From Methanobacteriota archaeon (GTDB lineage: Archaea > Thermoplasmatota > Thermoplasmata > Thermoplasmatales > ARK-15), in contig WSBC01000008.1 in assembly GCA_009758405.1 (NCBI GenBank), positions 1-64,000 on the forward strand: 64,000 nucleotides of DNA. Direction: 5' to 3'. Both the position numbers and the translations under genes were made by a program. Shown here piece after piece: positions 39,859-45,208 of this stretch. The notes under the pieces are model-generated. The model saw nothing but the letters and a program-made list of their open reading frames with translations. It was not told the origin of the DNA and did no database searches. Within the stretch, counting starts at the first letter, position 1. Every line of letters begins with the position of its first letter.

Positions 39859-39975
39859 ATGAGTCCTGCAGATCTATTGTTCATGCTTGTTTCCGCAGCA
39901 CTTGTAATGATAATGACTCCCGGATTAGCTCTTTTTTATGGGGGTCTTGTAGGTGTCATGAAAAAGGCTTTTTGA
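39859..39975 (+). pseudogene. N-terminal fragment of ammonium transporter (Amt), truncated at IS110-family element
   Basis: MSPADLLFMLVSAALVMIMTPGLALFYGGLVGVMKKAF*; Amt N-terminal TPGLALFYGGL motif; no remaining Amt sequence found downstream. Confidence 0.75.
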
Positions 39976-39980
39976 CCACG

Positions 39981-40141
39981 ATAACATGACGATGTTATTG
40001 TGAGAGTCGGAAAAGTGGTCGCCTTTGGTATTGACCTATAAAGGTCGTTTCCAAGGTTGACCACTTTTACGTCTCGACACTATACCTTGAAACAAAGGTG
40101 AATAGAAGATTGTCGAGATTTCCGACCCATAGGGCTCTCAC
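39981..40141 (+). ncRNA. Candidate IS110 bridge RNA in left noncoding end
   Basis: Hairpin ATAACAT/ATGTTAT (39981-39998); outer stem GTGAGAG/CTCTCAC (40000-40006/40135-40141) and TCGGAAA/TTTCCGA (40007-40013/40119-40125) enclosing two stem-loops, AAAGTGGTC/GACCACTTT (40012-40020/40059-40067) and TCTCGACA/TGTCGAGA (40072-40079/40111-40118). Confidence 0.65.
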
Positions 40142-40162
40142 GAACCACATAGAGGTGGTCTA

Positions 40163-41306
40163 ATGATAATAGGATTGGATGTATATAAGGATTTGGTATA
40201 CGTGACAAGAATGGAAAACGATGGGAAAATAACAGAACAATACGAAATGAAGAACAGTGAAGAATCATGGAACAAATTTGTAGGGTAAATACATATTAGA
40301 AATGCCTGAGATAGCACTTGAAGCATCCACATCTGGAAAGCATGTTGCAAGGATTCTAAGTTATGCAGGTTTTTCAGTCCACATTGCAGATCCAAAGAAA
40401 CTAGCATTGATATTCAAATCATCTAAAAAGAATGACAGATCGGATTCAGAAAATCTTGCAAAATTACTTAGATTGAATGAATTTCCAGAGGCATATTTGC
40501 CATCAAGGGAATATGAAGAAATGAGGACACTGACAAGGCACAGAAAATACCTTGGTGAGGAGGTTGTTAGAATTAAAAACAAAGTGCACAGCATTCTATC
40601 ATTGAATGGTATAAAGATAAAAGCCACGGACATATTTGGGAAAAAAGGCCTTAGTGAATTATCAAAATCTATAGAGAGGCTTAGTTACTCTGAAAAGATT
40701 GTTATAAATGATATGCTAAAAAGAATAATTGACATAAAGGAAAGATCAGAAAAGATTGAAAATGAAATGGCAAAAATAGGCAAAGATAGAGAGGACGTAA
40801 AAAGGCTCATGACAATACCTGGGATAAATATATACATCGCAACTGGGATAATAGGTGAAATAGGGGATATTAATAGATTCAGGAATAAAGAGAGTCTAGC
40901 ATCATATGCGGGTCTAGTACCAAGGCAAGATCAATCTGGAAAAAATGATAGGAAAGGGCACATAACAAAGGAAGGGCCATCAATGTTAAGATATCTTTTG
41001 GTACTAGCTGCACATACTTTGATAAAATACTCTAAGAAGATGAAGAATAAGTATCTCAGTTCAGTAAAGAGGATTGAGAAGAATAGGGCAATAGTAGCAA
41101 TAGCAAGGATTCTCGCTGAAATGATATTCACTATGCTAAAAAAGAATGTTGATTTCGAGGATGAGATAATTCCATTAACTGAAAAGAAGGTAAAGAAAAT
41201 GATTGAAAGAGCAAATTCGGGATCTGGAGAAATAAACATTCAGGAAAACATAAAATTAATATCATCTAAAGGATTTAGGTCATTGTCAACTAAGCCTTTT
41301 TCATAG
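40163..41306 (+). pseudogene. IS110-family transposase, single-nucleotide frameshift near 40283
   Basis: MIIGLDVYKDLVYVTRMENDGKITEQYEMKNSEESWNKFVG* in frame 2, then GKYILEMPEIALEASTSGKHVARIL... in frame 0; C-terminal IPGINIYIATGIIGEIGDINRFRNKESLASYAGLVPRQDQSG. Confidence 0.85.
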
Positions 41307-41601
41307 AAGATTGTAAGAAAACAAAGAAAGTAATATCAACAAAAGATGAGACAGGTATGAAAATTCTTAAATATTTAAATTTGGAGAGGTTTCAATAGCG
41401 CCCCATTACGATTATTAAGAAAAATCAGTAAAATAAAGGTTAATTTATCAATTTTTAATTTAAATCATGTAAACTTACGTCTTCATATTCTTTATTTTCT
41501 TTAAAATATACATCTCCTAATAACAACGTTTCCCAAGACATACTTATCCCTCCTATTTTTCAATTCCATAAGAATTCTTTCTCTGATATTCCATTACACC
41601 T

Positions 41602-43939: not shown

Positions 43940-45208
43940 CTATATAGGCATAGATAGGTATGAATCACTATACCTATCATATCCAAAATAGAGCTTGGGT
44001 TTCACAACTTCATATAACTCCCTCGCGAGTTCATCGGGAGTCTTCTGTTCCACCCCTGTCAGGAAGTACCCACCCACCAGCGTAGGCAAGATATTCGAAT
44101 CCCACCAACTTATCTGATGGGGAACTCCCTCCATACTCAGATACAGGTTGATTGATGCGTTGAGTTGTCTATCTATTGTTAACCCACAGTTCTTACACCT
44201 AAATACTTTGCTCCCATTCAGGTCTTTGTTGATACACCCACATCTGGAGCATTTCTTTGATGTGTACTCTGGTGGTAATTCAATGCAGTTGTTCACACGG
44301 TTCTTTATATTTTTCCAATCAGTGCGTGAAATTTGTCTGTTCCATAGCCTAGATGATCTATACATATTTTCTTTTCTTAAGTCTTCGAATCCGTTATTTC
44401 GGGCAACTGAATTTATTACCCTTGCAATTTCAACCTGATGTTTTCTTGCCCTGTTCCTTTCCCTTTTTGAATATTTTCTTGATACTCCTTTAGCTTTCTT
44501 TGATTTTGATGCCTTCTTTTGTATGCTTCTTCTTTTTTCAAATGAAGATATATGTACTGTGGCAAGGGGTTTTGTATCTATCTTAATCCATCCTGCTTCT
44601 GGTGAATACCCATCAATTGAAAACATGTTCAAATCCCATGCTACCTTCTCTGCTAAATACTTAACATTATTCTTATTAGGTTCGTGTATTGGCAGATACA
44701 ATTTATCCAATGTGATTATAGGTTCCCCGATTCCACTTGAGGATATATTTTTAGGAAGCTTGAAATATCTTTTTGACAGGTCAAAGTAAATAAATTTTCC
44801 AGGTGAGATTGTCACTCTTAGTCTATCTCCTTCCAATTTACATAAGGTCTGCTTAACCCTTATAAACAGTCTTTTTGCTTTAGGGCATTTCATTTTTCTA
44901 TTTCCTTTAACATAGTTCTTTTTCCAGGAATCCATTATTGAAAAAGCTGTTTTTAGTGCGGAATCAACCCAATGGGATGCATATTTCCAGTCTTTAAGGT
45001 ATTTGTCCCTCAATTCTTTTTTAAATAGATTGTCCTTTCTGTAATTTGGAAGAATCCTAAACTGCTTTTTCCCCTCTATCTGAGTTTTTTTCCATTTTAT
45101 ACTATCCCATATGTCTTCTAACATTGAGTTCAATATCTCATTATATGCTATAATCAGATCCTTGATATCTTCCCCCTTATCATGTTTGAGTGAATAGGTT
45201 TTTAGCAC
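43940..45208 (-). CDS. tnpB: TnpB RNA-guided nuclease-family protein (IS607)
   Basis: ELPPEYTSKKCSRCGCINKDLNGSKVFRCKNCGLTIDRQLNASINL (Zn finger + RuvC-III region), NGFEDLRKEN (RuvC-II region). Confidence 0.88.
   Translation of the reverse strand: MLKTYSLKHDKGEDIKDLIIAYNEILNSMLEDIWDSIKWKKTQIEGKKQFRILPNYRKDNLFKKELRDKYLKDWKYASHWVDSALKTAFSIMDSWKKNYVKGNRKMKCPKAKRLFIRVKQTLCKLEGDRLRVTISPGKFIYFDLSKRYFKLPKNISSSGIGEPIITLDKLYLPIHEPNKNNVKYLAEKVAWDLNMFSIDGYSPEAGWIKIDTKPLATVHISSFEKRRSIQKKASKSKKAKGVSRKYSKRERNRARKHQVEIARVINSVARNNGFEDLRKENMYRSSRLWNRQISRTDWKNIKNRVNNCIELPPEYTSKKCSRCGCINKDLNGSKVFRCKNCGLTIDRQLNASINLYLSMEGVPHQISWWDSNILPTLVGGYFLTGVEQKTPDELARELYEVVKPKLYFGYDRYSDSYLSMPI
43953..43978 (-). ncRNA. Candidate omega-RNA/right-end hairpin at the tnpB 3' end
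   Basis: GATAGGTAT-8 nt-ATACCTATC, 9-bp perfect stem overlapping the last tnpB codons. Confidence 0.4.

What the first reader, a model, noticed from the sequence alone, without database searches (positions are those of the whole stretch)
39976..40162. Candidate archaeal bridge RNA in the IS110 left end
The ~185 nt between the truncated amt and the IS110 transposase ATG contain a nested set of perfect stems: a 5' hairpin (39981-39998), a long outer stem (40000-40013 with 40119-40141), and two separate stem-loops. Each loop has an apical mini-hairpin: GACCT-ATAA-AGGTC in loop 1 (40033-40046) and ACCTT-GAAACA-AAGGT in loop 2 (40084-40099). The order, 5' hairpin then loop then loop, upstream of an IS110-group transposase, is the architecture described for IS621-type bridge RNAs, where the internal loops bind target and donor DNA. 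I cannot assign guide bases reliably; there is only weak resemblance to the flanks.
Basis: partly seen in the sequence, partly recalled or inferred. Interest (0 to 1): 0.78.

Follow-up and report, generated by a model that had tools for sequence, protein, structure and literature searches.

The report
Archaeal bridge RNA with flipped guides
A transposon in a heat- and acid-loving archaeon carries a guide RNA that, in its relatives, reads out the DNA sites where the transposon inserts; it belongs to the known bridge RNA/seekRNA kind, but combines the gene layout of one known group with the guide order of the other.

Summary
In detail: window 39976-40162 folds far better than shuffles (-76.9 kcal/mol, z = -8.0), and the stems lie where stated. 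It belongs to a structured RNA family matched in 39 of 117 genomes of the order (Thermoplasmatales), next to IS110-family (DEDD) transposases where I looked, with strong covariation. Loop 1 is a target guide. Its 3' segment matches each element's own left flank (53 elements, z = 8.9 against permutation). Its 5' segment matches the reverse complement of the right flank (z = 4.6-5.6). Loop 2 matches the element ends. An uninterrupted target places the core at AG (CT on the other strand). So the bridge RNA reading is right, with corrections. The guide order is that of IS1111 seekRNAs, not IS621; the ends carry 10-13 bp subterminal inverted repeats, an IS1111 trait; yet the RNA lies upstream of the transposase, an IS110 trait. 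I found this combination in none of the papers I could read. The window's own copy looks dead: the transposase is frameshifted, its guides match neither flank, and its right flank is not amt. No transcription or recombination was tested.

The parts
39951..39952 (+). Left copy of the AG core (CT on the other strand); left flank is the truncated amt
   Evidence: Register from 53 elements and an uninterrupted target in another genome
39953..41307 (+). The IS110-family element, 1355 bp, between the two AG cores
   Evidence: Homology stops at these points in relatives; ends refined by the empty site in another genome
39953..39957 (+). Left-end donor segment GTGTC, the complement of loop-2 GACAC
   Evidence: Changes in step with loop 2 between elements
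39958..39970 (+). Left subterminal inverted repeat ATGAAAAAGGCTT
   Evidence: Pairs with 41292-41304; changes in step at both ends among subfamilies
39980..39999 (+). 5' hairpin of the RNA
   Evidence: Fold; compensatory changes
40000..40141 (+). Core of the guide RNA (model R1)
   Evidence: Model match 135 bits (the window is one of the model's 14 sequences); covariation
40020..40032 (+). Loop 1, 5' target guide (CGCCTTTGGTATT here)
   Evidence: In relatives agrees with the reverse complement of the right flank plus core; no match in this copy
40033..40046 (+). Loop 1 apical mini-hairpin
   Evidence: Sequence, covariation
40047..40058 (+). Loop 1, 3' target guide, core AG at 40054-40055, handshake bases GT at 40056-40057
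   Evidence: In relatives agrees with the left flank (z = 8.9) and with the first two left-end bases (96% against 65%)
40076..40080 (+). Loop 2, 5' donor guide GACAC
   Evidence: Reverse complement of the left end; GACAC/GACAT/GATTT/GACCT go with GTGTC/ATGTC/AAATC/AGGTC
40100..40108 (+). Loop 2, 3' donor guide GAATAGAAG
   Evidence: Like the right end CATAGAAG; GAATAGGAG goes with CATAGGAG in another subfamily
40143..40160 (+). Small hairpin enclosing the GAGGTGG ribosome-binding-like motif before the transposase
   Evidence: Fold; ACCAC/GTGGT and ATCAC/GTGAT among relatives
40163..41306 (+). Transposase gene (PF01548 + PF02371), frameshifted near 40285
41292..41304 (+). Right subterminal inverted repeat AAGCCTTTTTCAT
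41308..41309 (+). Right copy of the AG core; right flank starts at 41310 and is not amt

Best explanation
The region encodes the guide RNA of an archaeal IS110-family element. Shown by sequence: a conserved RNA structure with a target loop and a donor loop; the target loop's 5' segment agrees with the reverse complement of the right flank and its 3' segment with the left flank, both reaching the AG core; the donor loop agrees with the left and right element ends; the two bases after the core in the target loop match the element's left end, as the handshake bases of IS621 do. Inferred: the RNA is made, binds the DEDD transposase, and guides recombination of a circular element (right end-AG-left end) with a target (left-AG-right), exchanging strands at the core. 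The guide order and inverted repeats are those of IS1111, the RNA's place that of IS110. The copy in the window is most likely inactive.
For: Fold z = -8. RNA model hits in 39 of 117 genomes of the order; of the matching genomes in a class-wide sample, one lies outside it. Pair covariation. 3' guide against left flank: 58.5% identity against 31% permuted, z = 8.9, n = 53; within subfamilies z = 6.6, one row per distinct guide z = 5.8; shifted registers give nothing. 5' guide against reverse complement of right flank: z = 5.6 over 10 bases, z = 4.6 for proper right ends, n = 18. IS621-order controls show no comparable signal. Handshake match 96% against 65%. Donor loop follows the left end in four sequence types. 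Empty site TTTAATGTGCATAAAGGATGTATT against the occupied site. Catalytic E, D, D and the SG motif are invariant and the first D nearly so in the aligned transposases. IS4321, an IS1111-group element used as a yardstick, also carries the reverse complement of its right flank (9 bases) and of part of its left-end extension in its non-coding region.
Against: No transcript, binding or recombination data. The window's guides match its own flanks no better than chance (2 of 7 and 1 of 4; read). The 5' guide sample is small (18-24). The donor-loop handshake test gave nothing (p = 0.18). The empty site is direct for one element only; a second rests on protein length.
Confidence: 0.92

Rival explanations
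1. It is an IS621-type (IS110-group) bridge RNA with the usual guide order.
For: RNA upstream of the transposase, 5' hairpin then two loops, target loop first.
Against: In the IS621 order the guides show no comparable match to the flanks: best z = 2.6 and 2.8 among seven registers each, while the reverse order gives z = 5-9 in one register. Long subterminal repeats.
Confidence: 0.04
2. The structure is a DNA or mRNA leader element (transposase binding site or translational control), not a guide RNA.
For: The end of the region holds a hairpin around the ribosome-binding-like motif; transposases can bind hairpin DNA.
Against: A regulatory structure would not be expected to track the element's own insertion flanks.
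Confidence: 0.04
3. The window copy itself is active, with guides reprogrammed or supplied from another copy.
For: RNA fold and end sequences are intact. A single-base assembly error could explain the frameshift.
Against: Frameshift in the transposase; only one RNA match in this genome; right flank not amt, and no amt family match in the assembly, which is 89% complete.
Confidence: 0.1

Closest known systems
IS1111-group seekRNA (ISEc11, ISPa11, ISKpn4; Siddiquee 2024, PMC11187229; IS4321 examined here)
   Same: Guide order (top-strand complement first), long subterminal inverted repeats, DEDD transposase with GL-P----SG motif; IS4321/IS5075 are the named elements among the plasmid matches listed
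   Different: In IS1111 the RNA region usually lies downstream of the transposase (IS4321 repeats 78 bp before and 252 bp after it; here about 211 and 10); transposase 374-390 aa here against 330-350
IS621 bridge RNA (Durrant 2024, PMC11208160; Hiraizumi 2024, PMC11208158)
   Same: RNA in the left end, 5' hairpin, target loop then donor loop, core dinucleotide in the target guides, handshake bases after the core
   Different: Guide polarity relative to the transposase reversed, core AG in transposase sense, long inverted repeats; single-sequence match to IS621 weak (E = 7.7e-6)
ISMtsp17 and ISHvo10, exceptions noted in Siddiquee 2024
   Same: IS1111 relatives with an upstream, or both upstream and downstream, non-coding region
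   Different: No guide order is given for them in the sections I read; relation to this family not tested

Membership tests
IS110 family (broad) | DEDD transposase with PF01548 and PF02371 | tested here: met
   Both domains above cut-off; catalytic residues conserved
IS110 family (broad) | Non-coding end encoding a structured guide RNA complementary to target and donor | tested here: met
   that the RNA is made was not tested
IS110 group, IS621-type bridge RNA | RNA in the left end upstream of the transposase | tested here: met
IS110 group, IS621-type bridge RNA | 5' target guide pairs with bottom strand of left target, 3' guide with top strand of right target | tested here: not met
   Reverse order found
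IS110 group, IS621-type bridge RNA | No or very short (2-3 bp) subterminal repeats | tested here: not met
   10-13 bp repeats
IS1111 group seekRNA | Subterminal inverted repeats of 7-17 bp | tested here: met
IS1111 group seekRNA | Top-strand complement 5' of bottom-strand complement | tested here: met
IS1111 group seekRNA | Non-coding region downstream of the transposase | tested here: not met
   About 211 bp before and 10 bp after
IS1111 group seekRNA | Transposase in the IS1111 clade | tested here: inconclusive
   Closer to IS4321 than to IS621 by score; deep tree unresolved
Bridge RNA / seekRNA | RNA co-purifies with the transposase and is needed for transposition | not testable with these tools
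   Needs an experiment

The most novel reading that the evidence does not exclude
A third natural layout of RNA-guided DEDD elements: IS1111 guide polarity and inverted repeats with the guide RNA at the left end, showing that RNA position and guide order are separable.
Probability: 0.65. Interest if true: 0.6.

Novelty: new variant of a known kind. Interest (0 to 1): 0.55.

Why it matters
Published work ties guide order to RNA position (IS110 upstream, IS1111 downstream). This family breaks that tie, which bears on how the two groups diverged. It also supplies a set of naturally reprogrammed guides from thermoacidophilic archaea, a source of possibly heat-stable bridge recombinases, and sets out the pairing rules needed to test one.

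Tried and rejected
Rfam: nothing but a chance mir-154 match. A single-protein scan of genome contigs found no relatives; the alignment scan did. I first placed the core directly after CATAG; the empty site showed that the right end runs to CATAGA or CATAGG and the AG follows, so the right-flank statistics were redone in the new register; the figures use the old one, which counts the core and one right-end base as part of the guide. The idea that the transposase stop codon uses the core was dropped for the same reason. The idea that another genome (G021) had its element in amt was a short overrun of the alignment. IS621-order pairing was tested as a control and not supported. Donor-loop handshake: no signal. 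The tree could not place the family in IS110 or IS1111. The right flank of the window element has no informative match in 20 relatives. I did not predict a protein structure.

Full report
The observation. Window 39976-40162 folds to -76.9 kcal/mol; 200 dinucleotide shuffles average -44.8 (sd 4.0), none as low. Rfam has no family for it.

The element. A DNA search of relatives found matches that begin and end at the same points as the window element. With the empty site described below, the element runs from 39953 to 41307 between two AG dinucleotides. Its ends carry subterminal inverted repeats, ATGAAAAAGGCTT and AAGCCTTTTTCAT here; other subfamilies have ATGAAAAAAGTT or ATGAAAAACCT with matching partners. 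The transposase has both IS110-family domains. In the window it is frameshifted near 40285. Intact relatives of about 374-390 aa exist.

The RNA family. An alignment of 14 left ends gave a covariance model. In the order, 39 of 117 genomes match at E <= 0.001; of the 35 matching genomes in a class-wide sample of 400, one lies outside the order. Named records of relatives are Thermoplasmata, among them E-plasma. Covariation: 12 of 32 pairs with changes on both sides in the 14 sequences, no shuffle of 500 as high; 31 of 32 in 81 distinct sequences, where the alignment was fitted to the structure.

Target guides. For 53 element copies with a readable left junction, the four bases before AG in the 3' half of loop 1 agree with the left flank at 58.5%, against 31% when flanks are dealt out at random (z = 8.9). 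Permuting only within subfamilies gives z = 6.6, and one row per distinct guide z = 5.8. Sliding the register by one to three bases removes the signal. The 5' half of loop 1 agrees with the reverse complement of the right flank (z = 5.6 over ten bases that include the core; z = 4.6 over seven bases outside the core with proper right ends, n = 18). An example is L059, where ATGATGGCTT is shared exactly. The two bases after AG in loop 1 equal the first two bases of the left end at 96% of positions, against 65% permuted, the pattern of the IS621 handshake guides (PMC11208158).

Donor guides. Loop 2 begins with GACAC, GACAT, GATTT or GACCT where the left end begins GTGTC, ATGTC, AAATC or AGGTC, and ends with GAATAGAAG or GAATAGGAG where the right end reads CATAGAAG or CATAGGAG. 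A few elements depart by one base or more. Fewer independent changes stand behind this than behind the target guides.

The core. One element (G033, L044) lies in an IS3-type transposase gene of which uninterrupted copies exist: TTTAATGTGCATAAAGGATGTATT empty, TTTAATGTGCATAAAG-GAATCATG...CATAGG-AGGATGTATT occupied. The shared overlap at this site is AGGA; a second element (L091) narrows it to AG if its target is inferred from protein length. AG is CT on the other strand, the IS621 core.

How it compares. Siddiquee and colleagues (PMC11187229) report that IS1111 elements usually have the RNA region downstream, long subterminal repeats, and the top-strand complement before the bottom-strand complement; the IS110 type has it upstream, and in the one member they tested the order is the reverse. 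Durrant and colleagues (PMC11208160) describe the same split in position and repeats. The present family has IS1111 order and repeats with an upstream RNA. IS4321, as a yardstick, has its repeats 78 bp before and 252 bp after the transposase and carries the reverse complement of its right flank in its non-coding region. Siddiquee notes a few IS1111 elements with an upstream region, but I saw no guide order for them. By score the transposase is nearer IS4321 than IS621, but the tree does not resolve it.

The window copy. Its guides match neither flank beyond chance (read). Its left flank is amt, cut at a GGLVG codon run that an intact amt of a relative (L206) shares; the right flank is not amt, and no amt match remains in the 89% complete assembly. 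I take it as an inactive copy with a rearranged right side; which event came first is not known.

What is shown and what is inferred. Shown: structure, conservation, covariation, guide-flank and guide-end agreement, element ends. Inferred: transcription, RNP formation, circular intermediate, strand exchange. No experiment was available.

Noticed in passing
window 40143-40160: A small hairpin encloses the ribosome-binding-like GAGGTGG before the transposase; some relatives keep the pairing through paired changes, others have a mismatch. It may restrain translation.
   Followed up: partly
L118, L112, L110, L113, L115, L116, L039:4362-4489: A subfamily whose left end reads CTACTATGAAAGAAG, without the ATGTC segment; guides not tested against flanks.
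   Followed up: no
L039 (G058) and L119 (G082): Two related elements lie head to head, their RNAs about 100 bp apart, as if one had inserted beside the left end of the other.
   Followed up: no
L151:1164-2150: A Micrarchaeota relative has a 15 bp repeat TATGAAAAACCGCCT placed 42 bp before and 209 bp after its transposase, the IS1111 layout with a similar end sequence.
   Followed up: partly
L148, L150: Thermoplasmata relatives with an 11 bp repeat 219 bp before and 29 bp after the transposase, so an upstream layout too.
   Followed up: partly
L001, L002: Two other IS110-family transposase matches elsewhere in the same genome, one with an internal stop.
   Followed up: no
window 43940-45208: ORF on the minus strand with a CxxC zinc-ribbon pattern, resembling an IS200/IS605-type TnpB; judged by eye only.
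   Followed up: no
L039, L062, L065, L067: The conserved start of several intact transposases has no ATG at the expected place; a non-ATG start is possible.
   Followed up: no
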